Of a stretch of 64,000 nt of DNA, positions 16,972 through 56,336 are shown in pieces (the stretch's first letter is position 1; each line of letters opens with the position of its first letter). The notes beneath the pieces were generated by a model. The model ran no database searches. It was given only the letters and a program-made list of their open reading frames with translations, and was not told the origin of the DNA. This DNA comes from Chamaelirium japonicum (Eukaryota; Streptophyta; Magnoliopsida; Liliales; Melanthiaceae), in the NCBI GenBank assembly GCA_947650365.1, contig OX393550.1, positions 71,619,478 to 71,683,477 of the forward strand, given 5' to 3'. A program made the translations under genes and the position numbers.

Positions 16972-38557
<21,586 letters not shown>

Positions 38558-40309: not shown

Positions 40310-40464
40310 GTGAGATTATCTTTGCTCCTGTGTGACAATATTGCACCTTGGAGACTTGAATAAGAAAAGCAGTATAATAAATTATTATTGAATGGGGAAA
40401 AATATATCTATTTGCATTAATGCTCGACTATGAGCTTACATATGACTAACTACATCTTGCCGGA

Positions 40465-41063
40465 TGTGGGTGCAAAAATTGTATCGGACGCCGAATGGAC
40501 TCGTGCGACGGCCCAAGTGAGTAAGCCCGTCCGGGCTCATGAACCCACTCTGCAAGGCCCGCAATTCAAGCCCTCCCCCTTATTGGGCTCGCACAATGGC
40601 CCAATAAGGGCCCAGCAAGGAGGCCCAAAACCAGAGCCACGTCATCACCGCCACATCATCACTGCCATATTGGGCACTTGCCTATGCTATAAAAGGACCC
40701 CCAAGGCATTCAGAATGGGGGGTTGGTTATTCAATCAGAGGAAGAGAGGATTCCAAAGCCAGAGCTAGATCTTACTTCTCTCCTCCTTGTTCTTTTCTTG
40801 TTGCTCTATGCAACCCCCACTGTAAAAAGATTCTCTCGGCTTGTTGAGAGAACGCTTCCCCACCTTTATATTCATTATAGTGGAAAACCAGGTGGCACCT
40901 CTCGTCCGGAGACGTAGGTCGTAAGACCAAACTTCGACAACAACTCCACGTGTCTTCTTTCTCTTTACCTACTTTTTAATCTATAACTCTACATAACATC
41001 CACATTCAATCAAGGCTGTGGAGCGGGGTTCCCGATCAAGGCGGCTCAGAAAGTTCCCCCATA
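40465..41063 (+). repeat. element X 5' LTR (599 bp)
   Basis: TGTGGGTGC start. It contains a TATAAAAGG-like box (about 40690-40698) likely to be the RNA polymerase II promoter of the element, and TAGGTCGTAAGAC shared by all four LTRs. Confidence 0.88.
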
Positions 41064-41064
41064 A

Positions 41065-42534
41065 TCTTTGGCGTCGTCTGTGGGATATCGTTAGAGGTCT
41101 TACCCACACCTCTACCGACTCCTATTCAACTTGTGGTGACGAGCCACAAGTCCTCCTTCAAGTCAACCTCAATGCCTTCATCACGCCGACATCAACACGC
41201 TCGATGGTGAAGGCCAGCACCAACCCACCGAAGGCGGGTGCCGAACGAACAAATGATGCACTGATCGAAGAAGAACAAGAAATCTCAGTTGCAACCAACC
41301 AGAGAAATGTTCGGGAATGACTAGGGCTGCAAGGCAGCCATCCAGAAGGGCGCAACGATCGGCAGGACCCGTCATCCTCGAGGCGTCGATTTGGCAAAGA
41401 ACATGCTACTCAAAGGAGCGAGCCTCAGGCTACAGACGAGATCTCAACTCTGACTTCCAGCTGCTAAATCTCCCCAAGAAGAATACAGCCCTCGAACAAG
41501 AGAAAGACTCCTTGAAGAAGGCAGCTGAAAGGGAGGGGGTTATCATCCATAACTCTCCCGCTGCGACTGAAGGCCCACTGAAGACTCGCCCAGCTACGAG
41601 TCATCACCTCGAAGAACCAAGGAGGGTTCATGCCGAAAAGCGTCAAGTATCCATGCTAGCACCTAAGCAAACGGTGTGGGATCGTCTTGACATCAATGGC
41701 ACGCCAAGCCACCGTCGAGAAAGGTCGCCTGAATCAACGGGGTCTACTGGACGACCAATTCACTCGCATGCGAGAACACCAGATGCACGTGAGCTACTCA
41801 ACCGACGAAGGCAAACCACCGATGTGGGACGCCGCCATCAAGATCGCAGGCTATTAATCGCCTCAGCAGGGCCTCTTCATCACAAGGTGCTCGCAACCCC
41901 TTTCCCTATGGGTTGGTGAACACCGAGCCTACCAAAGTTCAACTGCATCAAGGGAGACCCTGCCCTCCATATCCTGGCCTTCAAGCAAGCCATGACACCA
42001 TATGAGTATGAGAATCATATCCTCTGCCGTATGTTCGCGGGAAGCCTCGAGGGACCTGCCCTCGACTGGTACCACACGCTACCTACCGGTATGGTGACCA
42101 CATTCAAAGAGTTGGCTGAACTCTTCATGGACCATTACCGGCTAAACTTAAAGCCGGAAAAGAAGCTAGATACACTCTACCGGCTGAAGATGGGCTCTGA
42201 CGAGTCTCTAAGGAGCTTCACGATGAGGTTTCGTAATGAACACTCTGAGCTCACCGGTCGGTCCCATAATGAGGAGGCCATCATGCTAGTATTCCAGAAT
42301 GCTATCCGGCCAGAGCTCCACATCTACATCGACTTTATCCGACATCCTCCTAGTACTTTGGAGGCAATGCTTAAGCGCGTACAGCGGGAGATAGAGGTTG
42401 AAGACAATCAGCGGGCTAGAAGACTACGCGAGCCCCGCGAGTCTCGTGACTCTCAACATAAGAAAGATGACGAAGCTCCGAATGAAGCACACTACAAGAA
42501 GTCTGCCAATGCCGTGTCCGACCAAAAGGTACAG
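41065..42534 (+). pseudogene. element X gag, 5' part
   Basis: One frame from about 41317 to 42530 carries a coiled-coil segment (NLPKKNTALEQEKDSLKKAA) followed by the Retrotrans_gag domain: FAGSLEGPALDWYHTLP, TFKELAELFMDHYRLNLK, LYRLKMGSDESLRSFTMRF and AIRPELHIYIDF. A TGA at 41917-41919 interrupts it where Y has CGA, a CpG-deamination change. Gag is cut at 42534 by the Cassandra TRIM and, 14 bp further, by element Y. Its 3' end resumes at 50430. Confidence 0.9.
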
Positions 42535-42585
42535 TGTAACATCCGCCCCAAACATACAAGATTTTGTCCGCTTTGCCCATGCCCG

Positions 42586-42672
42586 TACGAGAACTTCCCA
42601 GGGTGGTCACCCATCCTAGTACTGCTCTCGCCCGAGCACGCTTAACTACGGAGTTCTTACGAAATCCGTAGT
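42586..42672 (-). other. 5S rRNA-like block with pol III-type control region (Cassandra LTR 1)
   Basis: On the minus strand it reads AACTCCGTAGTTAAGCGTGC, GGGCGAGAG-AGTACTAGG and ATGGGTGACC-CC-GGGAAGT in the same order as plant 5S rRNA, including box A (AGTTAAGCGTGC) and box C (AGTACTAGGATGGGTGACC). The first third and the last bases of 5S are not conserved, so it is a retroelement promoter derived from or mimicking 5S, not a ribosomal RNA gene. Confidence 0.9.
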
Positions 42673-42997
42673 GGCGCACGGCTTTAAAACGCGTCTTCTA
42701 TGTTTGGGAGGAGAAATTATATAAGTAGCTCAGGATCTCCTTCTCTCCAGGCGATGTGGGGCTAACTCATGGCCTTGTACACCTCACCTCACCTCATCCA
42801 TCTTGGCATTCCCGCCTTAGGAGTCTTGGCTCTTGGCTATTGGCCTATTGGATCTTGGTCGTCACAATCCACCCCCCTTAGGGCTACACGTCCTCGTGTA
42901 GGGTTAGACCCCCCCATAGCGAGGAGAACCGGCTCTGATACCATTTTGTAACATCCGCCCCAAACATACAAGATTTTGTCCGCTTTGCCCGTGCCAG

Positions 42998-43084
42998 TAC
43001 GAGAACTTCCCAGGGTGGTCACCCATCCTAGTACTGCTCTCGCCCGAGCACGCTTAACTACGGAGTTCTTACGAAATCCGTAGT
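42998..43084 (-). other. 5S rRNA-like block (Cassandra LTR 2)
   Basis: Same block in the second LTR, identical to the first over box A to box C. In minus orientation this LTR is the 5' one and would drive transcription. Confidence 0.9.
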
Positions 43085-43302
43085 GGCGCACGGCTTTAAA
43101 ACGCGTCTTCTATGTTTGGGAGGGGAAATTATATAAGTAGCTCAGGATCTCCTTCTCTCCAGGCGATGTGGGGCTAACTCATGGCCTTGTACACCTCACC
43201 TCACCTCACCTCACCTCATCCATCTTGGCATTCCCGCCTTAGGAGTCTTGGCTCTTGGCTATTGGCCTATTGGATCTTGGTCGTCACATACAGGCCAAAA
43301 GG

Positions 43303-43816
43303 TGTGGGTGCAAAAATTGTACCGGACCGGATTAGAGCTACATGGGCCCGCGCAACGGCCCAAGCGGGTAAGCCCACAGTGCCACATCATTATCGCTACA
43401 TCATCACTGCTATATTGGGCACATGCCTATGCTACAAAAGGACCCCAAAGGCATTCAGGTGACGAGGGGGGTTGGTCATTTGATCAAAGGAGGAGGATTC
43501 GAGAGCAAGGGCTAGAGCTCAATTGTCCACTTCCTATTCTCTTCTAGTTGCCCCGTGCAACCCCATTGTACAAAGCTTCTCTCGGCCTATCGAGAGAACA
43601 CTTCCCCCTCCTTACTCATATTATAGTGAAGATCAGGTGGCACCTCACACCCGGAGACGTAGGTCGTAAGACTGAACTCCGTCACCAATCCTTGTGTCAT
43701 CACTCTCTACTCTCTCTATCTACTCTCCCATCTCTCTAACTCTACAAACCATCAACATTCAATCAAGGCTGTGGGGTGGGGTTCCCAATCAAGGCGGTAC
43801 GAAATTTTCCCCCACG
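43303..43816 (+). repeat. element Y 5' LTR (514 bp)
   Basis: TGTGGGTGC start, matching the other three LTRs; carries an internal deletion relative to its partner at 49827. Confidence 0.88.
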
Positions 43817-43869
43817 ATCTTTGGCGCCGTCTGTGGGATATCGATAGAGGTCTTACCCACACCTCTACC

Positions 43870-45615
43870 GACTCCTATTCAACTTGTAGTGACGAGCCAC
43901 AAGTCCTCCTCCAAATCAACCTCAATGCCTTCATCACGCCGACATCAACACGCTCGATGGTGAAGACCAGCACCAACCCACCAAAGGCGGGAGCTGAATG
44001 AACAAACGATGTGCTAATCGAAGAAGAATAAGAAGTCTCGGTTGCAACCAACCGAAGAAATGTTCGAGAGCGGTTGGGACCGCAAGGCAGCCATCCAGAA
44101 GAGTACAGCAATCGGCGGGACCCGTCATTCCCGAGGCGTCGATCTGGCAAAGAACACGCTATTCAAGGGAGCGAGTCTCAGGCTACATGCGAGATCTCGG
44201 CTGCTGACTTCCAGTTGCTAAATCTCCTCAAGAAGAACGCGACCCTCGAACAAGAGATAGACTCCTTGAAGAAGGCAGCTGAAAGGGCGGGAGTTATGAT
44301 CCATAACTCTCCCGCCGCGACTGAAGGCCTATTAAAAACTCACCCAGTCGTGAGTCATCATCTTGAAGAACCACATGTGCCGCGTATCGAGAGGCATCAG
44401 ATATCTACACAAGCACCAAGGCAAACGGTGTAGGACCGCTTCGACGTCGACGGTGCGCCAAGCTATCGCCGAGAAGGATCGCCTCAGTCAAAAGAGTCCA
44501 CTGGACATTCTATCACTTCGCACACGAAAGCAACAGATGCCCGCGAGCTACTCAACCGAATTAGGCATACTGCCGACGTGGGACGCCGTCATCAAGACCG
44601 CAGGCAGCTAATCACCTTGGTGGGGCCACTGCATCCCAAAGTTCTTGTAACCCCATTTCCTATGGATTGGCGAACACCGAGCCTGCCAAAGTTCAACTGC
44701 ATCAAGGGAGACCCTGCTCTCCATATCCTGGCCTTCAAGCAAGTCATGACACCATATGAGTATGAGAATCATATCCTCTGCCGTATGTTCACGGGAAGCC
44801 TCGAGGGACCTGCCCTCGACTGGTACCACACGCTGCCTACCGGTACGGTGGCCACATTCAAAGAATTGGCTGAACTCTTCATGGACCAATATCGGTTAAA
44901 CTTAAAGCCGAAAAAGAAGCTGGATACACTCTACCGACTGAAGATGGGCTCCGACGAGTCTCTAAGGACCTTCACGATGAGGTTTCGTAATGAGCACTCC
45001 GAGCTCACCGGTCGGTCCCATAATGACGAGGCCATCATGCTGGCATTCCATAATGCTATCTGGCCAGAGCTCCACGTCTACACCGACTTCATCCGGCATC
45101 CTCCCAGTACCTTGGAGGCAATGTTCAAGCGCATATAACGAGAGATAGAGGTGGAAGATAATCAGTGGGCCAAAAGACTACGCGAGCCCCATGAGTTTCG
45201 TAACTCCCGACATAAGAAAGATGACAAAGCTCCGAATGAAGCACACTACAAGAAGTCTGCCAATGCCGCGTCCGACCAGAAGATACAAGCCAAAAGGTAC
45301 AATGAAGATCCGAAGGCTCCTCCAGCAGGGAAGAGGCAAACTCCAAGGGAGCAAAGGGTATTCACTGAGCTGAACACCTCTATTGAAGACATCTTCGTCT
45401 ATTTGTAGAACGAGCCCTTTTGCAAGTGGCCACAGCCTCTCCCTCCAAATTTCGACTAGGCGGAAGATACAACAACTTACTGTGAGTTCCATCGCAGCTA
45501 TGGTCACCCAACCTCTACATGTCGGTGGCTAAAGCATCACATCGAAGATCTGATCCAAGAAGGGCAGCTCGATGACTGCCTCGCTAACAAGGAACCAGGT
45601 TGAGAGAAGTAAAGG
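43870..45615 (+). pseudogene. element Y gag
   Basis: Same protein as X gag, in one frame from about 44074: coiled coil (KKNATLEQEIDSLKKAA), Retrotrans_gag core (FTGSLEGPALDWYHTLP, LFMDQYRLNL, SFTMRF-like) and a C-terminal part with TPREQRVFTELNTSIEDIF, then a zinc-knuckle variant YCEFHRSYGHPTSTC followed by LKHHIEDLIQEG, typical of Tat-lineage Gag. In-frame stops lie at about 44431, 45136, 45406 and 45457. Where X is intact the codons are TGG, CAG, CAG and CAG, so all are C-to-T or G-to-A changes. Gag binds and packages element RNA in intact relatives. Confidence 0.9.
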
Positions 45616-45749
45616 CAGCAGCCATGGAGAAAGAGAGTCAACGTAATACGTGGATGAATAATCATAACGTCCGCTGGGCAGCCTATGAAAAAGTGTAACT
45701 GCAACTTTATTTTATCAATAAAGTATTTTCTTAAAATCAAATCTCTCGA

Positions 45750-46340
45750 AGTTCGATTCCACCATGTTAAGGCATAAAAAAAAGGCTCCTGGCAACCCAG
45801 GTCAACCAAAGACCTTTGATTCCACCCATTCAAGTCAGAAGCTCGAAGGCAACTCGGTTATGCCCTCTCGAGGCTAAAGTTCGATAAAATGGCTCCTGGC
45901 AATCCAGGTCAACCAAAGACCTTCGATTCCGCCCATTCAAGTCGTAAAAACTCGAAGGCAATTCGGTTATGCCCTCTCGAGGCTAAAGTCCGATAAAAAG
46001 GCTTTTGGCAACCCAAGTCAACCAAAGACCTTCGATTCTGCCCATTCAAGTCGGATACTCGAAGAATTGGCTATGCCCTCTCGAGGCTAAAGTCCGATAA
46101 AAAGGCTCCTGGCAACCCAGGTCAACCAAAGACCTTCGATTCTGCCCATTCAAGTTGGAAGCTCGAAGGCAATTCGGCTACGCCCTCTCGAGGCTAAAAT
46201 CCGATAAAAAGGCTCCTGGCAACCCAGGTCAACCAAAGACCTTCAATTTTGTTCGTTCAAGTCGGAAGCTCGAAGGCAATTTGGCTACGCCCTTTCAAGG
46301 AGAAAGTCCGATAAAAAGGTTCCTGACAATCCAGGTCAAG
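45750..46340 (+). repeat. 107-bp tandem array in Y (about 5 copies)
   Basis: Units contain GTCCGATAAAAAGGCTCCTG, CAACCCAGGTCAACCAAAGA and GCCCTCTCGAGGCTAAA. The period is 107 bp, not a multiple of three, so it is not coding. Confidence 0.92.
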
Positions 46341-46429
46341 CTAAGCTATCAATTATACTTATCCAAGGCGATAAGAATAAGTCCAAGGCAGGCATTGCCA
46401 CTTTGACATGCACCAAGTTCAAGGAGACA

Positions 46430-46680
46430 TCTTTGGCACTCAAAGACAAAGTCCGAGGCGACCAACGTCTCGGTACTCTACAAGCCCAAGGCCCAGTCGT
46501 TGACACTCGAAGACAAAGTCCGAGGCGACCAATACCTCGGTACTCTACAAGCCCAAGACCCAGCCCTTGGCACTCAAAGACAAAGTCCGAGGCGACCAAC
46601 GCCTCGGCACTCTATAAGCCCAAGGCCCTAACCTTGACACATAAAGACAAAGTCCGAGACGTCGTCGTCGACGTATTGGC
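46430..46680 (+). repeat. 67-bp tandem array in Y (about 4 copies)
   Basis: Units contain AAGACAAAGTCCGAGGCGAC, CTCGGCACTCTACAAGCCCA and AGGCCCAGCCCTTGGCACTC; measured period 67 bp. Confidence 0.9.
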
Positions 46681-47384
46681 ATGCGATCAAAAGTCCAAGC
46701 TTAGTCTTGTCACTCGGGTCCAAGCATAAGATTGTCACTGGCCATCACCTTTTCTCGATGACTGACGGTTCCAAACTGGATAGGAGGTAGTCGGTCTAAC
46801 TCTGTCAACGCGTGTCTCCACACTGGTGCAGTGGCGGTGGGTTCTTCATGATCTTCGTTCTCAAGGGTCCTTAACGGCCCGAGCTCGCCATCAAAGCCAC
46901 TATCCGAATCCTCAATATGTGGCAGAGAAGGAGTGCAAACAATCTCCTTCGTTCCTCGATGGTGTTTTTCCAACACAGCGGGTCCCCTGATGGTTTTCAT
47001 TGTGAAAAGAGCGACCTATAATGAGTGAACAAACGACAAGTAAAGAGTAGGGTGGATGAAAAATCCATCGAAACACGAGATAAAATGGCGCTTCCTTGAT
47101 CCTGGCCAAGTCAACACCCTCACGTGACCGTAGTACCTGGCGAATACAGTAACTAGGTGCGGTAACACATTGGGTGAAGACTGACTGGCCATCATGTGGC
47201 GTCATCCTAGATTATCTCTAAGAAGCCCCCTCAAATATAGCGTTGTCCATCACCGACAACCCTGCGCACCAGTGTTTTAGGAATATGACCAAAAAAGTGT
47301 CGGTTTCAGATGGGGCTAAAATTCGAAAAACACACTATTTTCAATATCGACACTTCTTGGCCTCTTCTAGCAACCCCAATAATG
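46681..47384 (+). other. unique spacer conserved between Y and X
   Basis: Matches 52690-53400 in X (for example CGACTGACGGTTCCAAAC, CCTTGATCCTGGCCAAGT, AAGAAGCCCCCTCAAATATA). No protein domain on either strand. Being the only non-repetitive post-gag module, it may hold packaging or RNA-processing signals; that role is inference. Confidence 0.6.
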
Positions 47385-48345
47385 GGGTGTCAGCATCAAC
47401 AAGCAGCCCTCCCTCTCGGTTTCGCACAAAAACTGAGTGAGGAGGGGGTGACGACACCCCTCAAGCAGCCCCCCATCTCGGTTTTGTAAAAAACCGAGAG
47501 GGGAGGGGGTATTGGCATCAGCTACAGCACACCCGTTCGTTTCGTCAGAAAACCGAGAAGGGGGGGGTGTCGGCATCAACAAGCAGCTCCCCCTCGGTTT
47601 CGTACAAAAAACCGAGTGGGGAGGGGGCGACGACACAATATCAGCATCCCACCCCTCGATTTTGATAGAAAAACCGAGTGGAGAGGGGGTAACGACACAC
47701 CATCATCAGCCCACCCCTCGGTTTTGACAGAAAAACCTAGAGGGGGGGGGTGTTCCGCATCAACAACCCACCTCTCGGTTTTGTTAGAAAATCGAGAGGG
47801 TGTGTGTGTCGGCATCAACAAGCAACATCCCCTCGGTTTCACACAAAAACCGAGTGGGGAGGGGGTGACGGCACCCCACAAGCAGCCCCCATCTCGGTTT
47901 CGTAAAAAACCGAGATAGGAGGGGGTGTTGGCATCAGCTACAGTCCACCCCTTGGTTTCGCACAAAAACCGAGTGGGGAAGGGGTGACGACACACCATCA
48001 ACAGCCCACCCCTCTGTTTCGTTAGAAAACCGAGAGGGGGGGTGTGTCGGCATCAACAAGCAGCCCCCCCCCTCGGTTTTGCATAAAAACTGAGTGGGGA
48101 ATGGGTGACGGCACCCCACAAGCAGCCCCCCATCCCGGTTTCGCAAAAAACAGAGAGAGGAGGTGTTCAACATCAACAACAATCCACCCCTCGGCTTCGT
48201 CAGAAAACTGAGAGGGGGCGTGTGTCGGCATCAACAAGCAGCCCCCCCCCCCTCGGTTTCGCACAAAAACTGAGTGGGAGGGCGTGATGGCACACAATCA
48301 GCAGCCCGACCTTTGGTTTCGTCAGAAAACCAAGAGAATAAAGAT
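47385..48345 (+). repeat. hairpin array in Y
   Basis: About a dozen short inverted repeats of the form CCCCTCGGTTT-loop-AAACCGAGAGGGG, separated by spacers with GGCATCAACAAGCAGC or ACGACACACCATCAGCAGCC. Stems are about 10-12 bp with loops of 5-8 nt, spaced roughly 80 bp. Confidence 0.88.
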
Positions 48346-49255
48346 GGTCTGCATTAAAAAAAAAAAAACCTGACCCCAACAGCGCGAAGTGGGAGTCGAA
48401 GACACGCTTGTCGGAGAGCGGAGAAGCTTCTTCCGCGCCGAGAGAATGCCCGCTGAGGTACACCACTGACGGCAAGGGTGGGCCTTTGCAGCACCAGACA
48501 CACGAGAGGAGGAACAAAACGAGCGAAGCAGCCCGTGATGCACCTAAGAATGATACACCTAAGAAGGAAAGAAACAATGTACAACTGTGATTTCCATTCC
48601 AACAGTCCCCTATTGATTTGCAACATCAATCATAGTGCCATGCCTTTCCAATAGTCAAAGAGAGAAAAAAAAGGGACCCGGCTCTCAACAGCCACTGCGA
48701 TCCGCACCCCGTGCCGACCATCGATGCTGCTGCTACCGTCCAACCCGCAACACAAAAAAAAAAAAAAGGGTCGGCTCCTGTGTACAGCACAAACAAACAA
48801 AAAAAAAAGGGGCCGGCTCCCACTCGTGCACGAACTCTCACCCCTCTTGTTGTGCCCCATTCTCCTGTGTACAGCAGAAATGAAAAAAAAAAAAAAGAAA
48901 GAGAGAAACAGCAGAAACAAGGAAAGGAACAAAAAAAAGAAAGAAACGAAAAGCAAAGAAAGGAAAGAGAGAAAGAAAAAAAAGAAAGAAACAACAAAGA
49001 AGATTACACCCACTCTCTCCCACTCATGCACACAAGGACCCTGTGACCCCCCACTTGTCGTGCCTCTGTCATGGATGTACAAAAAAAAAAAAAAGGAGGT
49101 TGCTTGTACATGAAGCTGATGCAATCCCACTCTTATGGATCTGACCACTGGATTGCCCACGCCGCTCCGGATCAAACGAAAGCCGCACGTCACTCGTCGG
49201 CCGGGATCGAATGCAAATGCCACACAATCTCTACTATAGCTACTGGTGGAGACCA
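48346..49255 (+). repeat. A-rich, degenerate repeats specific to Y
   Basis: Contains several poly-A runs (48357-48368, 48760-48772, 48883-48898, 49081-49094) alternating with repeated words such as GTGTACAGCA and GGCTCCCACTCGTGCACG. X has an unrelated array at this place. The long Phe- and Lys-rich frames are composition artefacts. Confidence 0.65.
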
Positions 49256-49299
49256 TGTGGGATCGAAACAGAAGTCTCACGTCGCTCATTGCTCGGCGT

Positions 49300-49665
49300 C
49301 GAAGGAAAAGGGTCTCGGTCAGAAAATACATTGATTTTTTGGAAACGACCCCTTACAAAACCGAGACTTTTTGGCTCTCACCAAGAGGGTCTCGGCGTAG
49401 GCAGAAGGAAGAGGGTCTCGGCTTCGGCAGAAGGAAAAATGTCTCGGCATCGGCAGAAGGAAAAGGGTCTCGGTCGGAAAACACATTGATTTTTCAGAAA
49501 CACCCCCTTACAAAACCGAGACTTTTTGGCGCTCACCAAAAGGGTCTCGGCATCGGCAGAAGGAAAAGGGTCTCGGTCGAGAAACGCATTAGTTTTTCGA
49601 GAATGCCCACTTGCAAAACCGAGACTTTTTGGCTCGTACCAAAAGGGTCTCGGCATCGACAGATC
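49300..49665 (+). repeat. 103-bp tandem array in Y (about 3.5 copies)
   Basis: Units contain AAAGGGTCTCGGTC, AAAACACATTGATTTTT, ACAAAACCGAGACTTTTTGG and GGGTCTCGGCATCGGCAGAA. One unit has extra copies of the GGTCTCGGC-GGCAGAAGG module. Confidence 0.88.
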
Positions 49666-49826
49666 AGCACAAGTATCCTACACGAACACGTTGTCACGAG
49701 TCGGGACTCTGCTAATACGAACCGCGACTCTGACGGCCATAGCCAACCATGCCAGAATCCTAAGGCGTTTGCACCATGGAATCCCAGTCGTTCCAGGAGG
49801 TCCTGACCCGACTAGGAGGGGGTAAC

Positions 49827-50429
49827 TGTGGGTGCAAAAATTGTACCGGACCGAATCAGAGCTACATGGGCCCGCGCAACGGCCCAAGTGGGTAAACCCG
49901 CTCGGGCTCATGGGCCCACTCTGTAGGGCTCGCAGATCAAGACCTCCCCCTTATTGGGCCCGAACAACGGCCCAGCAAGGAGGCCCAGAACCAGTGCTAC
50001 ATCATCATCGCTACATCATCACTGCCATATTGGGCACATGCATATACTACAAAAGGACCCCAAATGCATTCAGGTAAGGAGGGGGGTTGGTCATTTGATC
50101 AAAGGAGAAGGATTCGAGAGCAAGGGCAAGAGCTCAATTGTCCTCTTCCTATTCTCTTCTAGTTGCCCCGTGCAACCCCATTGTACAAAGCTTCTCTCGG
50201 CCTGTCGAGAGAACGCTTTCCCCTCCTTACTCATATTATAGTGAAGATCAGGTGGCACCTCACGTCCGGAGACGTAGGTCGTAAGACTGAACTCCGTCAC
50301 CAATCCTTGTATCATCACTCTCTACTCTCTATCTACTCTCCCATCTCTCTAACTCTACAAACCATCAACATTCAATCAAGGCTGTGGGGTGGGGTTCCCG
50401 ATCAAGGCAGCACGAAAATTTCCCTCACA
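49827..50429 (+). repeat. element Y 3' LTR (603 bp)
   Basis: TGTGGGTGC...CCCTCACA, preceded by the polypurine tract and followed by the AAAGG duplication. Confidence 0.88.
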
Positions 50430-50758
50430 AAAGGTACAATGAAAATCCGAAGGTCCCTCCAGCAGAGAAGAGGCAAACTCCAAGGGAGCAAAGAGTGTTC
50501 ACTAAGATGAACACCTCAATTAAAGACATCTTCACCTACTTGCAGAACGAGCCCTTTTGCAAGTGGCCACAGCCTCTCCCTTCAAATTTTGACCAGGCAG
50601 GAGATACGACAGCCTACTGTGAGGTCCATCGTAGCCATGGCCATCCAGCCTCTATATGTCGGAAGCTAAAGCATCACATCGAAGACCTGATCCAAGAAGG
50701 GCGGCTTGATAGCTACCTCGCTAACAAGGAACTAGGTCAAGAGAAGGAAAGGCAGTAA
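50430..50758 (+). pseudogene. element X gag, 3' part
   Basis: Resumes exactly where X gag was interrupted by Y, after the AAAGG duplication. It encodes KRQTPREQRVFTKMNTSIKD, FCKWPQPLPSNFDQAGDTTA and the zinc-knuckle variant YCEVHRSHGHPASIC, then LKHHIEDLIQEGRL, ending ERQ-stop at 50758. This part is open without stops. It lacks its own start and is separated from the 5' part by about 7.9 kb. Confidence 0.9.
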
Positions 50759-50904
50759 CAGTGGAGAAAAAAAGTTAACGTAATACGTAGATGCATAATC
50801 ATAACGTCCGTTGGGCAGTCTCTGAAAAAGTGTAACCGCAACTTTGTTTTATCAATAAAGTGTCTCTTTTTTTTCAAAATCAAATCTCTCGAAGTTCGAT
50901 TCCA

Positions 50905-52235
50905 CCATGTTAAGGCATAAAAAAAAAAGCTCCTGGCAACTCAAGTCAACCAAAGACCTTCGATTCCACCCATTCAAGTCGGAAGCTCGAAGGCAATTTG
51001 GTTACGCTCTCTTGAGGCTAAAGTCCGATAAAAAGGCTCCTGGCAACCCAGGTTAACCAAAGACCTTCGATTCCGCCCATTCAAGTCGGAAGCTCGAAGG
51101 CAATTCGGCTACGCCCTCTCGAGGCTAAAGTCCGATAAAAAGGCTCCTAGCAACCCAAGTCAACCAAAGACCTTCGATTCCGCCCATTTAAGTCGGAAGC
51201 TCGAAGACAATTTGGCTACGTCCTCTCGAGGCTAAAGTCCGATAAAAAGACTCCTGACAACCCAGGTCAACCAAAGGCCTTCGATTTTGCTCGTTCAAGT
51301 CGGAAGCTCGAAGGAAATTCGACTACGCCCTCTTAAGGCTAAAGTCCGATAAAAAGGCTCCTGACAACCCAGGTTAACCAAAGACCTTCGATTCCACCCA
51401 TTCAAGTCGGAAGCTCGAAGGCAATTCGGCTACGCCCTTTCGAGGCTAAAGTCTAATAAAAAAAGCTCATGATAACTTAGGTCAACCAAAGACCTTCAAT
51501 TCCGCCCATTCAAGTCGGAAGCTTGAAGGCAATTCGACTACGCCCTCTCGAGGCTAAAGCCCGATAAAAAAGCTCCTGGCAACCCAGGTCAACCAAAGAT
51601 CTTCGATTCCGCCCATTCAAGTCGGAAGCTCGAAGGCAATTTGGCTACGCCCTCTCGAGACTAAAGTCCGATAGAAAGGCTCCTAGCAGCCCAGGTCAAC
51701 CAAAGACCTTCGATTCTTCCCATTCAAGTCGGAAGCTCAAAGGCAATTCGGCTACGCCCTCTCGAGGCTAAATTCTGATAAAAAGGCTCCTGGCAACCCA
51801 GGTCAACCAAAGACCTTCAATTCTGTCCATTTAAGTCGAAAGCTCGAAGGCAATTCGACTACGCCCTCTCAAGGCTAAAGTCTGATAAAAAGGCTCCTGG
51901 CAATCCATGTCAACCAAAGACCTTCGATTCCACTCGTTCAAGTCGAAAGCTCGAAGGCAATTCAGTTACGCCCTCTCAAGGCTAAAGTCTGATAAAAAGG
52001 CTCCTGGCAACCCAGGTCAACCAAAGACCTTCGATTCCGCCCATTCAAGTCGGAAGCTCGAAGGCAATTTGGCTACGCCCTCTCGAGGCTAAAGTCCAAT
52101 AAAAAAGCTCCTAGCAACCCAGGTTAACCAAAGGCCTTCGATTCCGTCAATTTAAGTCAGAATCTCAAAGGCAATTCGGCTATACCCTCTCGAGATGAAA
52201 GTACGATAAAAAGGCTCCTAGCAATCCAGGTCAAG
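50905..52235 (+). repeat. 107-bp tandem array in X (about 12 copies)
   Basis: Same unit as in Y with more than twice the copy number; successive GTCCGATA words at 51023, 51130 and 51237 fix the 107-bp period. Confidence 0.93.
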
Positions 52236-52304
52236 CTAAGCTATCAACTATACTCATCCAAGGCGATGAGAATAAGTCCAAGGCAGGCATCGCCGCTTCG
52301 ATAT

Positions 52305-52690
52305 GCACCAATCCCAAGGCCCAGCCCTTGACACTTAAAGACAAAGTCCGAGGCGACCAACACCTCGGCACTCTACAAGCCTAAGGCCCAGTCCTTGGCA
52401 TTCGAAGACAAAGTTCGAGGCGAACAACTCCTTGGCACTCTACAAGCCCAAGGCCCAGCCCTTGGCACTCGAAGACAAAGTCCAAGGTGACCAACGCCTC
52501 GGCACTTTATAAACCCAAGGCCCTGCCCTTGGTACTTGAAGACATAGTCCGAGGCGACCGATACCTCGGCACTCTACAAGCCCAAGGCCCAGCCCTTGGC
52601 ACTCGGAGACAAAGTCCGAAATGACCAACACCTCGGCACTCTACAAGCCCAAGGCCCTACCCTTGACACATAAAGACAAAGTCTGAGACG
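52305..52690 (+). repeat. 67-bp tandem array in X (about 5-6 copies)
   Basis: Same unit as 46430-46680 with AGACAAAGTCCGAGGCGACC. Confidence 0.9.
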
Positions 52691-53404
52691 TCGTCACTGA
52701 CGTATTGGCATTCGATCAAAAATCCAAGCTTAGTCTTGTCACTCAGGTCTAAGCATCATATTGTCATTGGCCATCACCTTTACTTAACGACTGACGGTTC
52801 CAAACCGGTTAGGGGGTGTTCGGTCTAACTCTGTCAGCGCATATCTCCACACTGGTGTAGTCGATGATAGGTTCCTCATGATCTTCATTCGCAAAGGGCC
52901 TTAACGGCCTGAGCTCGCCATTAAAGCTACTATCTGAATTCTCAATATGTGGTAGGGGAGGAGCGCAAAACAACTCTTTCGTTCCTCGATGACATTTTTC
53001 CAACACAGCAGGTCCCCTAACGGTTTTCATCATGAAAAGAGCGGCCTACAATGGGTGAAAACGATAAGTAAAGAGTAGGGTGAGTGAAAAATCCATCGAA
53101 ACACGAGATAAAATGGTGCTTCCTTGATCCTGGCCAAGTTAACACCCTCACGTGACCTTAGTACCTGGCGAATACAGTAACCAGGTGAGGTAGTACATTG
53201 GGTGAAGACTGGCTGGCCATCATGTGGCATCATCCTAGATTATCTCTAAGAAGCCCCCTCAAATATAGCGTTGTCCCTCACCGATAACCCCGCGCACTAG
53301 TGTTTTAGGAATGTGATCGAAAAAGTGTCGATTTCAGATAGGGCTAAAATTCAGAAAACATAATATTTTCAATACTGACACTTTTTGGCCTCTCCTAGTA
53401 GCCC

Positions 53405-54300
53405 CAATAACGGGGTCGACACCATCAACAGCCTACCCCTCGGTTTCGATAGAAAATCGAGAGGGGGGGGGGGGTGTTCGGCATCAACAACAACCCACCC
53501 CTCGGTTTCGTTAGAAAACCGAGAGGTGGGGTATGTCAGCATCAACAAACAGCCCCCCCTCGATTTCGCACAAAAAATCGAGTAGGGAGGGGGTGATGGC
53601 ACACCATCAGTAGCCCACCCCTTGATTTCGACAGAAAACCGAGATGTGGGGTGTTCGGTATCAACAACAACCCACCCCTCGGTTTTGTTAGAAAACCGAG
53701 AAGGGGGTGTTCGGCGTCATCAGCAACTCACCCTTTAGTTTTAACAAAAAACCGAGAGGGGGGTGTATCGGCATCAACAAGCAGCCTCCTCCTCTTGTTT
53801 CGTACAAAAACCAAGTGGAGAGGGGGTGACAGTACACCATCAGCAGCCCATCCCTCGGTTTCATCAGAAAACCGAGAGGGGGGGTATCGGCATCAACAAG
53901 CAGCCCCCCCTCGGTTTCACGCAAAAAACCGAGTGGGGAGAGGGTGACGGTACACCATCAGCAGCCCACCCCTCAGTTTCGTCAGACAACCGAGAGGGGG
54001 GGTGTGTCGGTATCAACAAGCAGCCCCCCCTTGGTTTTGCATAAAAACCCAAGTGGGGAGGGGGTGACGGCACACCATTAGCAGCATACCTCTCGGTTTT
54101 GCAAAAACCCAAGAGGGGAGGGGGTGTCGGCATCAACAATAGTCCACCTCCCGGTTTTGTCAAAAAACCAAGAGGGTCGGGGTGTTCAGCATCAACAATA
54201 ATCCACCTCTCGGTTTCATCAGAAAACTGAGTGGGTGGGTGTTCGGCATCAACACCAGCTCATCCCTCGGTTTCGTCAAAAACCGAGAGGGGAGGGTCTC
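53405..54300 (+). repeat. hairpin array in X
   Basis: Same CCCCTCGGTTT / AAACCGAGAGGGG short hairpins as in Y, about ten to twelve, with compensating-looking changes in some stems. Confidence 0.87.
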
Positions 54301-54304
54301 GGTG

Positions 54305-54900
54305 TCTACAATAGCCGTGCTCGGATCTGCTTAGAGAGGCTTCGGTACAACGACCATAATTTTTTATTCCAAACTCTGATTAGGTTAAAATTTAGACTGG
54401 AGGTAAAGGAATTCGATTTGCAAATTTTGCATCTAGTTTGAGGTTGTTTGGACTTTTGTATCTCCCACAACAATAGAAACATTGTTGGTCATTGGTGCAA
54501 AATTTCGACAGCGGATCTGCTCGTAGAGGCTTCGGTACAACGATCATAACTTTTAGTCATGAACTTCGATTGGGATTGGGCTGAAATTTGAACTGTATGT
54601 AGAGAACTCTGAGCTGCAACTTTTACATCTAGTTTGAGGTTATTTGGACTTCTATAGATCTTGAAACAATAGAAACACCATTGATCTTCGGTGCAAAATC
54701 TGGACAGCAGATCTCCTCGGAGAGCCTTCGGTACAACGGCCATAACTTTTGATTACGAATTCCGATTGAGCTAAAATTTGGAGTGTATATAGAGCACTCT
54801 GATACGCAACTTTTGTATTTAGTTTGAGATCATTTAGACTTCTACAACTTATAAAATAATAAAAACACCATGGACCTCCTGTGCAAAACCAGGACAATAA
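54305..54900 (+). repeat. about 190-bp tandem repeat specific to X (3 copies)
   Basis: Units begin near CGGATCTGCT (54322, 54512) and CAGATCTCC (54708), each with AGGCTTCGGTACAACG, CCATAACTTTTGATT-like, AGTTTGAGGTTATTTGGACT and ACAATAGAAACACCATTG. Periods are 190-196 bp. Confidence 0.85.
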
Positions 54901-54904
54901 GAAA

Positions 54905-55480
54905 ATGAGTATCGGTCGAAAAACGCATTGATTTTTCGGGAATGCCCACCTACAAAACCGAGACTTTTTGGTTCGTACCAAGAGGGTCTCAGCGTCGGTA
55001 GAAAGAAAAGGGTCTCAGTCGAAAAACACACTTGTTTTTTGAAAACGCCCACTTACAAAATAGAGACTTTTTGGCTCGCACTAAGAGGGTCTCGGCATTG
55101 GCAGAAGGAAAAGGGTCTCGGTCGAAAAACACACTAGTTTTTCAAGAACACCCACTTAAAAAACCGAGACTTTTTGGCTCGCACCAAGAGGGTCTCGGCA
55201 TCGGCAGAAGGAAAAGGGTCTCGGTCGAAAAGCACACTAGTTTTTCGAGAACGCCAACTTACAAAACCAAGACTTTTTGGCTCGCACCAAGAGGGTCTCG
55301 GCATCGGCAGAAGGAAAAGGGTCTCAGTCAGGAAACACACTAGTTTTTCGAGAACACCCACTTACAAAACTGAGACTTTCTGACTTGTACCAAAAGGGCT
55401 TCGGTGTCGGCAGTAGGAGAAGAAACCTTGGTTGGAAGACATACTGTTTTTTAGGAAGCACCCCTTTATAAAACCGAGAC
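54905..55480 (+). repeat. 103-bp tandem array in X (about 5 copies)
   Basis: GGGTCTCAGTC at 55010 and GGGTCTCGGTC at 55113 show the 103-bp period; same family as 49300-49665. Confidence 0.92.
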
Positions 55481-55727
55481 CTTTTTAGCCTGCACCGATA
55501 AATACTGAATCGTGACCATGGTAGCAGGAGGACTGCAAATATGGAAAGAAGATCAGCACAAGTATCCTACACAAACACATTGGCTTGGATCGTGACACGA
55601 GTCGGGACTTTGCTAATACGAACCGCGACTCTAATGGCCCTAGCCAACCATGCCAGAATCCTAAGGTGTTTGCACCATGGAATTCCAGCCGACCCAGGAG
55701 GTCCTGACTCGACTAGGAGGGGGTAAC

Positions 55728-56331
55728 TGTGGGTGCAAAAATTATATTGGACTGGATCAGAACTGCATGGGCTCACGCGACGGCCCAAGTAAGTAAGCCC
55801 GTTCGAGCTCATGGACCCACTCTGCAAGGCCCGTAATTCAAGCCCTCCCCCTTATTGGGCTCGCACAACGGCCCAATAAGGACCCAGTAAGGAGGCCCAG
55901 AACCAGTGCCACGTCATCACCACTACATCATCACTGCCATATTGGGCACTTGCCTATACTATAAAAGGACCCCCAACACATTCAGAATGGAGGGTTGGTC
56001 ATTCAATCAGAGAAAGAGAGGAACCCAAAGCTAGAGCTAGATCTTACTTCTCTCATCCTTGTTCTTTTCTTGTTGCTCTATGCAACCCCCACTGTAAAAA
56101 GCTACTCTCGGTCTGTCGAGAGAACGCTACCCCACCTTTATATCCATTATAGTGGAAACTAGGTGGCACCTCTCGCCCGAAGACGTAGGTCGTAAGACCG
56201 AACTTCAACAACTCCACATGTCTTCTTTCTCCTTACCTACTTTTTAATCTCTAACTCTACATAACATCCACATTCAATCAAGGATGTGGGGCGGGGTTCC
56301 CGATCAAGGCGGCTCGAAAATTTCCCCCACA
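55728..56331 (+). repeat. element X 3' LTR (604 bp)
   Basis: TGTGGGTGC...TTTCCCCCACA, followed by CTGGA, the right copy of the target-site duplication. Confidence 0.9.
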
Positions 56332-56336
56332 CTGGA

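What the first reader, a model, noticed from the sequence alone, without database searches (positions are those of the whole stretch)
43817..49826. A gag-only Ty3-gypsy family in which pol is replaced by a chain of different tandem arrays
Between gag and the polypurine tract, Y has about 4.2 kb and X about 5 kb with no protease, RT, RNase H or integrase. Instead there are 107-bp, 67-bp, hairpin and 103-bp arrays in the same order in both. Tat-lineage elements are known to carry variable tandem repeats before the 3' LTR, but total loss of pol with retained gag and four or more ordered arrays would make this a structured non-autonomous family that could seed satellites.
Basis: partly seen in the sequence, partly recalled or inferred. 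Interest (0 to 1): 0.75.

Follow-up and report, generated by a model that had tools for sequence, protein, structure and literature searches.

The report
Gag-only retrotransposons carrying host-gene fragments
This plant genome holds hundreds of copies of a jumping element that kept its shell gene but lost its copying enzymes, moved recently anyway, and in some copies carries pieces of ordinary plant genes between its built-in repeat arrays.

Summary
Y (43303-50429) and X (40465-56331, with Y nested in its gag) are complete LTR elements: TSD, PBS, gag, then 107-bp, 67-bp, hairpin and 103-bp arrays in that order, PPT, LTR. No protease, RT, RNase H or integrase was found. Six of six further copies read whole share the plan, have perfect 5-bp TSDs and LTR divergence of 0-0.023: the family moved recently without pol. 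A 24-base PBS motif occurs 738 times exactly. Gag looks constrained (pN/pS 0.21 in its C-terminal part). A young pol-bearing Tat family in the same genome shares the PBS and LTR ends and is a plausible helper; an older pol-less relative keeps a remnant of that family's antisense ORF, a likely intermediate.

New here: a copy-specific region lies between the hairpin array and the 103-bp units. Three of eight copies hold clear host-gene pieces there (SHMT, EF-hand, PMEI), a fourth a weak one; SHMT and EF-hand pieces have multiplied. The 107-bp unit shows no sign of satellite growth.

Pol-less Tat elements with gag and arrays, TR-GAGs and gene capture by LTR elements are each in print; the combination is a new variant.

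The parts
40465..41063 (+). X 5' LTR (TGTGGG...CATA), TSD CCGGA at 40460-40464
   Evidence: 89.8% to X 3' LTR; boundaries read
41067..41085 (+). X primer binding site (one C>T against the family)
   Evidence: sequence
41064..42534 (+). X leader and gag, first part (Retrotrans_gag)
   Evidence: PF03732 5.2e-9; 86% DNA identity to Y
42535..43288 (-). Cassandra-like TRIM inserted in X gag, TSD TACAG, 5S rRNA-like stretch in both LTRs
   Evidence: Rfam 5S_rRNA 46.8 and 47 bits, above gathering; LTR pair 96%
43303..43816 (+). Y 5' LTR; TSD AAAGG at 43298-43302
   Evidence: 92.7% to Y 3' LTR over the main BLAST piece
43820..43838 (+). Y primer binding site TTTGGCGCCGTCTGTGGGA
   Evidence: sequence; in six copies and in the pol-bearing relative; one six-copy read (L031) has a base change within it
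43839..45778 (+). Y leader and gag, frame broken; domain about 44785-45060
   Evidence: PF03732 2e-9 on 44434-45135
45779..46339 (+). Y 107-bp array, 5.3 copies
   Evidence: TRF; same unit in 6 of 6 copies
46433..46658 (+). Y 67-bp array, 3.4 copies
   Evidence: TRF; 6 of 6 copies
46660..47380 (+). Y conserved spacer ('mid')
   Evidence: 85-89% in 6 of 6 copies, which lack about 0.2 kb of it; 75% in older relative L062
47384..48337 (+). Y hairpin array, about 60-bp units
   Evidence: TRF; 16 units found
48341..49280 (+). Y variable region (A/G-rich; no host-gene domain in the ORFs scanned)
   Evidence: differs from copy to copy; Pfam empty
49298..49663 (+). Y 103-bp units
   Evidence: TRF 49441-49663; further unit at about 49301-49396
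49814..49823 (+). Y polypurine tract AGGAGGGGGT
   Evidence: sequence; GGAGGGGGT at the same place in six copies
49827..50429 (+). Y 3' LTR; TSD AAAGG at 50430-50434
50435..50922 (+). X gag, last part, after the Y insertion
   Evidence: 87% to Y gag end
50923..52234 (+). X 107-bp array, 12.3 copies
   Evidence: TRF
52309..52687 (+). X 67-bp array, 5.7 copies
   Evidence: TRF
53415..54296 (+). X hairpin array
   Evidence: TRF; 16 units found
54297..54896 (+). X variable region, three repeats of about 190 bp
   Evidence: TRF; no match to the other copies' variable regions
54899..55496 (+). X 103-bp units
   Evidence: TRF 54915-55422
55715..55724 (+). X polypurine tract
   Evidence: sequence
55728..56331 (+). 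X 3' LTR; TSD CTGGA at 56332-56336

Best explanation
A non-autonomous, gag-coding LTR retrotransposon family derived from the Tat lineage (Retand side). Shown: complete element ends and TSDs, a gag frame open in many copies and apparently constrained, no pol found, a fixed chain of arrays, recent insertions, and a copy-specific region that in some copies holds host-gene pieces. Inferred: the element RNA makes its own gag shell, is primed at the same PBS and is copied and integrated by RT and integrase supplied in trans by a pol-bearing Tat family (type L057/L059) with matching PBS and LTR ends. Inferred: arrays and variable region arise by strand transfer during reverse transcription, within one RNA (arrays), between co-packaged element RNAs (module exchange) and now and then onto a packaged host mRNA (gene pieces), since this 3' region need not code.
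For: 6 of 6 sampled copies: same order of parts, 5-bp TSDs, LTR K80 0, 0, 0.0017, 0.0049, 0.0099, 0.0233. No RT, RNH, aRNH, IN or protease-side match in them or in the window. Open gag frames up to 688 aa among 150 scored places; gag pN/pS 0.21 in the C-terminal part outside the search query, against 1.14 for a captured SHMT piece in seven held copies. Helper: L059 pol frame 1126 aa with RVT_1, RT_RNaseH, RVT_3 and rve; 47 of 150 scored places match its 182-aa RT piece at 100%; its LTR starts TGTGGGTGCAAA and ends CCCCCACA as in the family, PBS the same. Intermediate L051/L062: LTR 68-69%, gag 70-79%, 107 array, antisense-ORF remnant, spacer, hairpin array, 103 units, LTR, no pol. Cargo: SHMT 2.4e-39, EF-hand 2e-24, PMEI 4.5e-17, exonuclease-like 0.0016; SHMT piece in 9 places at 98-100%, the six with held flanks all in family context; EF-hand piece in 29 places at 95-100%, 8 of 31 listed places with a listed gag hit 2.5-9 kb upstream on the same strand. 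Shared modules always on the same strand.
Against: Trans-supply is not shown: no expression or particle data; the helper's 3' LTR and PPT were not read, and its LTR body has no BLAST match to the family LTR. A closer helper may exist. RNA-level capture is not shown: the SHMT piece lies within one exon-like stretch, so no spliced intron could be tested, and one of four pieces is antisense. Only 2 of 13 SHMT places had a listed gag hit upstream (the gag list is a small part of the family). Hairpin arms show no covariation (604 of 2000 shuffles reach the observed pairing), so no RNA role of that array is supported. The gag set is biased to open frames (13 of 30 fetched copies used), and N-terminal gag has pN/pS 0.51.
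Confidence: 0.75

Rival explanations
1. Separate deletion derivatives: each pol-less copy lost pol on its own from a pol-bearing parent with the same LTRs.
For: Pol-less Ogre elements in Lathyrus were explained by large deletions (passages of PMC7004042).
Against: 6 of 6 copies share the same order of parts, with LTR pairs of 97.7-100% identity; an older relative is already pol-less. No pol-bearing copy with this LTR was seen, but only eight copies were read whole.
Confidence: 0.08
2. The gene pieces came in at DNA level (repair patches, or nested Helitron or Pack-type transposons landing in the variable region), not by template switching.
For: Pieces in both orientations (3 sense, 1 antisense); the SHMT piece lies inside one exon-like stretch, so its lack of introns proves nothing; A/G-rich spacers between modules (by eye).
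Against: The same place in the element each time, between hairpin array and 103-bp units; modules re-assort between copies in one orientation. TIRs or Helitron ends were not searched.
Confidence: 0.35
3. The helper is another Tat family than L057/L059, with closer LTRs, not yet sampled.
For: LTR bodies of L057 and the family do not align by BLAST; 12 of 28 places of the PBS variant were fetched and two of them followed to a pol.
Against: LTR ends, PBS and gag homology fit L057/L059, which is young, with many 1126-aa frames.
Confidence: 0.35
4. The arrays and their order serve a function (packaging, RNA stability, silencing escape) rather than being by-products of replication.
For: Same four kinds of array in the same order in X, Y and 6 of 6 copies; three of them also in L062.
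Against: Copy numbers vary (5 to 12 for the 107-bp unit); no covariation in the hairpin arms; shared order may be plain descent.
Confidence: 0.2

Closest known systems
[quoted passage not shown] Chaparro et al. 2015, not read, cited in PMC8704663 and PMC10552921)
   Same: LTRs, PBS, a gag frame, PPT, no pol; a TR-GAG moved in Arabidopsis ddm1 (passages of PMC8704663; PMC10552921).
   Different: Here four ordered arrays and a variable region with host-gene pieces fill the 3' half; Ty3/gypsy, Tat-related, where the Arabidopsis case is ATCOPIA63.
Non-autonomous Ogre elements with gag next to tandem arrays (FabTR-54, FabTR-57; PMC7004042)
   Same: Tat/Ogre lineage, pol missing, gag close to arrays in the 3' region (passages).
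   Different: Those were explained by large deletions, and their arrays also form satellites; here a young family of uniform plan, no satellite sign for the 107-bp unit, and gene pieces.
Retand-type Tat elements (PMC6317226)
   Same: In the likely helper: aRH between RH and INT, an antisense 3' ORF with a sub-threshold Transposase_28 match, 3' arrays (passages).
   Different: The family itself has no pol.
Maize Bs1
   Same: An LTR element with transduced pieces of host genes (passages of PMC13317346); that Bs1 lacks RT is recalled.
   Different: Bs1 is low-copy (passage of PMC2774510) with pieces of three genes; here hundreds of copies, different cargo in different copies, ordered arrays.
Gene capture by LTR retrotransposons in maize, rice and sorghum (PMC2774510, PMC3726574)
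   Same: Host-gene fragments inside intact LTR elements; 425 maize elements, at least 189 captures (passages; abstract).
   Different: In maize spread over 81 families; here one gag-only family with cargo in the same slot.

Membership tests
TR-GAG | Two LTRs with TSD, PBS and PPT | tested here: met
   X, Y and 6 of 6 copies; X's TSD has one mismatch
TR-GAG | Single long gag frame | tested here: met
   Retrotrans_gag; frames of 573-648 aa in L031, L034, L035, L036, 517 aa in L033, split into 460 and 207 aa in L032; broken in X and Y
TR-GAG | No pol | tested here: met
TR-GAG | Moved by an autonomous partner | not testable with these tools
   Plausible partner found; no activity data
Tat lineage | aRH domain beside the usual RNase H | tested here: not met
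   No pol at all in the family; its gag relative L059 has both. So 'derived from Tat' rests on gag homology (48-51% aa), PBS and LTR ends
Tat, Retand subclade (of the helper L059) | aRH between RH and INT; Transposase_28 ORF in some members | tested here: inconclusive
   Domain order met; Transposase_28 22.3 bits, below the cut-off of 26.2; Ogre shares the domain order
LARD | Large internal region without coding capacity | tested here: not met
   Gag frame present and apparently constrained
Gene-capturing LTR element | Host-gene piece inside intact LTRs and TSD | tested here: met
   L035 SHMT, L036 EF-hand, L032 PMEI
Gene-capturing LTR element | Piece copied from spliced mRNA | tested here: inconclusive
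   SHMT piece lies inside the first matched stretch of the genes; others not tested
Satellite source | Array unit also in long arrays outside elements | tested here: not met
   107-bp unit only: 4461 exact hits to 738 PBS motifs; exact counts miss diverged units; 67, hairpin and 103 units not tested

The most novel reading that the evidence does not exclude
The family works as a gene-shuffling vehicle at RNA level: a gag-only, Tat-derived element whose slot between the hairpin array and the 103-bp units takes in host mRNA pieces by template switching, re-assorts them between co-packaged element RNAs, and spreads them through the genome with pol from a helper, comparable in outcome to Pack-type transposons.
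Probability: 0.35. Interest if true: 0.75.

Novelty: new variant of a known kind. Interest (0 to 1): 0.55.

Why it matters
It gives a young, high-copy case of uniform plan in which loss of pol, retention of an apparently constrained gag, 3' arrays and host-gene pieces can be followed together, with a likely helper and a likely intermediate in the same genome. It makes two open questions testable: why gag-only elements keep gag, and whether Tat 3' arrays and gene capture share one cause, strand transfer during reverse transcription.

Tried and rejected
Pol hidden in the intervals: rejected. RVT_3 (PF13456) as a way to Tat elements: 150 of 15586 candidates scored; about a hundred are one repeat on small contigs, several others lie in frames of 1000-1393 aa (LINE-like by size, not tested); no use. 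PBS variant ending in GGGAA as a way to pol-bearing relatives: 28 places, 12 fetched, 3 of 12 (L052, L057, L058) with a gag of another Tat family; two of those followed, both with pol domains. L055: older gag relative; nothing recognised in the 8.9 kb fetched downstream, L061. RNA role of the hairpin array: covariation test negative. L069 as the SHMT parent gene: it looks like another captured copy, running on into other sequence after the piece. Exonuclease-like piece of L031: origin search did not complete, one of 12 searches left unused. A hit to TPR_21 at 0.01 in L031 lies below its cut-off and was not followed. Species not identified; 'plant' is inferred from the element lineages. The primer tRNA was not tested.

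Sampling told in full: six copies were read whole out of 150 scored places, themselves the best of 17886 first-look candidates, chosen by a gag query, so copies without gag cannot appear. Host-gene pieces: in L033 three and in L034 four ORFs were scanned, without a hit; in X and Y, 20 of 90; shorter or broken pieces could be missed. gag pN/pS: of 30 fetched loci, 6 were dropped because a short motif used to fix their strand was missing, and 11 more because the open frame was too short (the window copy L001 among them). In one search, 138 of the 150 gag places were typed in; the 12 left out lie on small contigs. In one search, units needed both arms within two mismatches, which favours paired units. 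In one search codons with more than one difference were split 0.7/0.3, a rough rule, and pairs of copies are not independent.
Full report
What is there. The window lies in a 1.52-Gb genome (G000:C2:71619478-71683477). Two complete LTR elements of one family overlap in it by nesting. X spans 40465-56331: LTRs 89.8% identical by BLAST, K80 0.090, TSD CCGGA/CTGGA. Inside its gag sit a Cassandra-like TRIM with a 5S rRNA-like stretch in both LTRs (42535-43288, TSD TACAG) and the element Y (43303-50429, TSD AAAGG, LTRs 92.7% over the main BLAST piece, K80 0.057). X being older than Y fits the nesting.

Anatomy. From 5' to 3': LTR (514-604 bp here, 600-620 aligned bases in the six further copies), PBS TTTGGCGCCGTCTGTGGGA, leader and gag (PF03732), 107-bp array, 67-bp array, a conserved spacer of about 0.5-0.7 kb, the hairpin array of about 60-bp units, a variable region, 103-bp units, a conserved tail, a PPT (AGGAGGGGGT in Y), LTR. 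In X and Y the gag frame is broken. In the intervals no pol was found by tblastn with the domains of a Tat relative, with its protease-side stretch or by Pfam on 20 of 90 ORFs of at least 60 aa.

The family. A search with one gag piece gave 150 scored places of 17886 first-look candidates, all 150 at 85-100% identity, with open frames up to 688 aa. Six copies were read whole. All six have the same parts in the same order, perfect 5-bp TSDs, and LTR K80 of 0, 0, 0.0017, 0.0049, 0.0099 and 0.0233. One of them (L035) sits inside another copy's gag. A 24-base PBS motif occurs 738 times exactly, its backward control 0 times. So this is a recently active, high-copy family, pol-less in all eight copies read, and not one damaged locus. 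Because the copies were found through gag, copies without gag would not have been seen.

Gag seems kept for a reason. Among 13 copies with a long open frame, pooled pN/pS is 0.51 in the N-terminal part, 0.21 in the search piece and 0.21 in the C-terminal part, which the search did not select. A captured SHMT piece in seven held copies gives 1.14. The set is biased to open frames, so 0.21 is an indication, not proof.

The likely helper and an intermediate. The PBS variant search (28 places) led to L057/L059, two overlapping stretches of one element: a gag 48-51% identical in protein to the family's, a pol frame of 1126 aa with RT, RNase H, a second RNase H between RNase H and integrase, and integrase, an antisense ORF of 712 aa with a sub-threshold Transposase_28 match, then 119-bp and 160-bp arrays. 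Domain order fits Ogre and Retand, the ORF points to Retand (passages of PMC6317226). Of 150 scored places with its 182-aa RT piece, 47 are 100% identical over its length, so it is young. Its LTR begins TGTGGGTGCAAA like the family's, ends in CCCCCACA, and its PBS is the same; the LTR bodies do not align by BLAST, and its 3' end was not read. The protease-side stretch of this copy has broken frames. L051/L062 is an older relative (LTR 68-69%, gag 70-79%): 107-bp array, a remnant of the antisense ORF (42% aa over 162 residues and 28% over a further stretch, on the antisense strand), spacer, hairpin array, 103-bp units, tail, LTR, no 67-bp unit and no pol domain. The simplest history, inferred, is loss of pol first and of the antisense ORF later, with the 67-bp array now in that place.

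The cargo. Between the hairpin array and the 103-bp units the copies differ. Pfam found in L035 the start of serine hydroxymethyltransferase (2.4e-39; best solved chain SHMT4, 5e-49), in L036 a run of EF hands (2e-24), in L032 a PMEI domain (4.5e-17), all element-sense, and in L031 a weak antisense 3'-5' exonuclease match (0.0016, below cut-off). L033, L034, X and Y gave none in the ORFs scanned. That is 3 of 8 copies clearly and a fourth weakly. The SHMT piece occurs in 13 places: 9 at 98-100%, others at 96, 95, 89 and 74%; flanks were held for six of the nine, all with LTR, 103-unit or tail pieces of the family. Four SHMT genes (C8 twice, C11, C134; C134 is the 96% place, one on C8 the 89% place) have a first matched stretch covering profile positions 1-217 or nearly, while the cargo covers 2-95 in nine places and 2-98 in one, so the piece is internal to that stretch and says nothing about splicing. 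The EF-hand piece (40 of 58 candidates scored) occurs in 29 places at 95-100%, with a 79% and a 73% place that may be genes. Of 31 EF-hand places 8, and of 13 SHMT places 2, have a listed gag hit upstream on the same strand (the gag list covers a small part of the family). Three more on C1 have a PBS motif 6-7 kb upstream on the same strand: EF-hand C1:53961062 and C1:31619480, SHMT C1:55826811. The PMEI piece has five places: L032 itself, two full-length ones at 89 and 87%, two partial ones, of which C5:74586389 lies 5.6 kb downstream of a listed gag hit. Cargo modules recur in different combinations (for example L034 and L035, L035 and L066), always on the same strand.

How it may work. Shown: structure, youth, missing pol, open gag, cargo. 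Inferred: gag in cis, pol in trans, and strand transfer during reverse transcription as the common source of arrays and cargo. [quoted passage not shown]

What does not hold. Satellite seeding by the 107-bp unit: 4461 exact hits of a 24-mer, about six per exact PBS motif, densest group nine hits in 1.2 kb among the first 100 places listed. RNA selection on the hairpins: 114 units, 604 of 2000 shuffles reach the observed pairing.

Known or new. Pol-less Ogre elements with gag beside arrays (PMC7004042), TR-GAGs and their movement (PMC8704663), and gene capture by LTR elements (PMC2774510, PMC3726574, PMC13317346) are in print. In seven paper searches I saw no gag-only Tat-derived family with ordered arrays and a constant cargo slot; only listings, abstracts and passages were read, so this is weak evidence of absence.

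Noticed in passing
window 42535-43288: Cassandra-like TRIM on the minus strand in X gag; both LTRs carry a 5S rRNA-like stretch above Rfam's gathering score; perfect TSD TACAG; LTRs about 96% alike by BLAST, K80 0.012.
   Followed up: yes
L047, L050, L054 (family LTR) and L049 (L057-type LTR): Four of 12 fetched places of the PBS variant are tail-to-tail LTR pairs joined at or just after the PBS; the PBS holds TGTGGGA, the reverse complement of the LTR end, so a fold-back or microhomology joint may recur in two families (L049 by eye).
   Followed up: partly
about a hundred small contigs such as C2234, C2265, C476: An RVT_3 (RNase H-like) hit of identical score with one TAG, frame mostly 353 aa, recurs on about a hundred unplaced small contigs: a homogeneous repeat that carries an RNase H-like frame.
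   Followed up: no
window 25071-26090, minus strand: 339-aa open frame; its second half reads like the RNase H end of a Copia pol (by eye, recalled, not searched), joined to GGGGGCCGG-type repeats at 25767-26005.
   Followed up: no
EF-hand places: In 16 places the EF-hand piece comes in two parts, 1-112 (or nearly) and from 103 on, about 0.35-0.5 kb apart with a 10-base overlap; L036 and six others have it whole, one more from base 27. A deletion between short repeats and a lost intron could not be told apart.
   Followed up: partly
L057 LTR, about 692-1498: The likely helper's LTR carries a 43-bp tandem array (5.8 copies) near its start; TRF lists no such array in the LTRs of X and Y.
   Followed up: no
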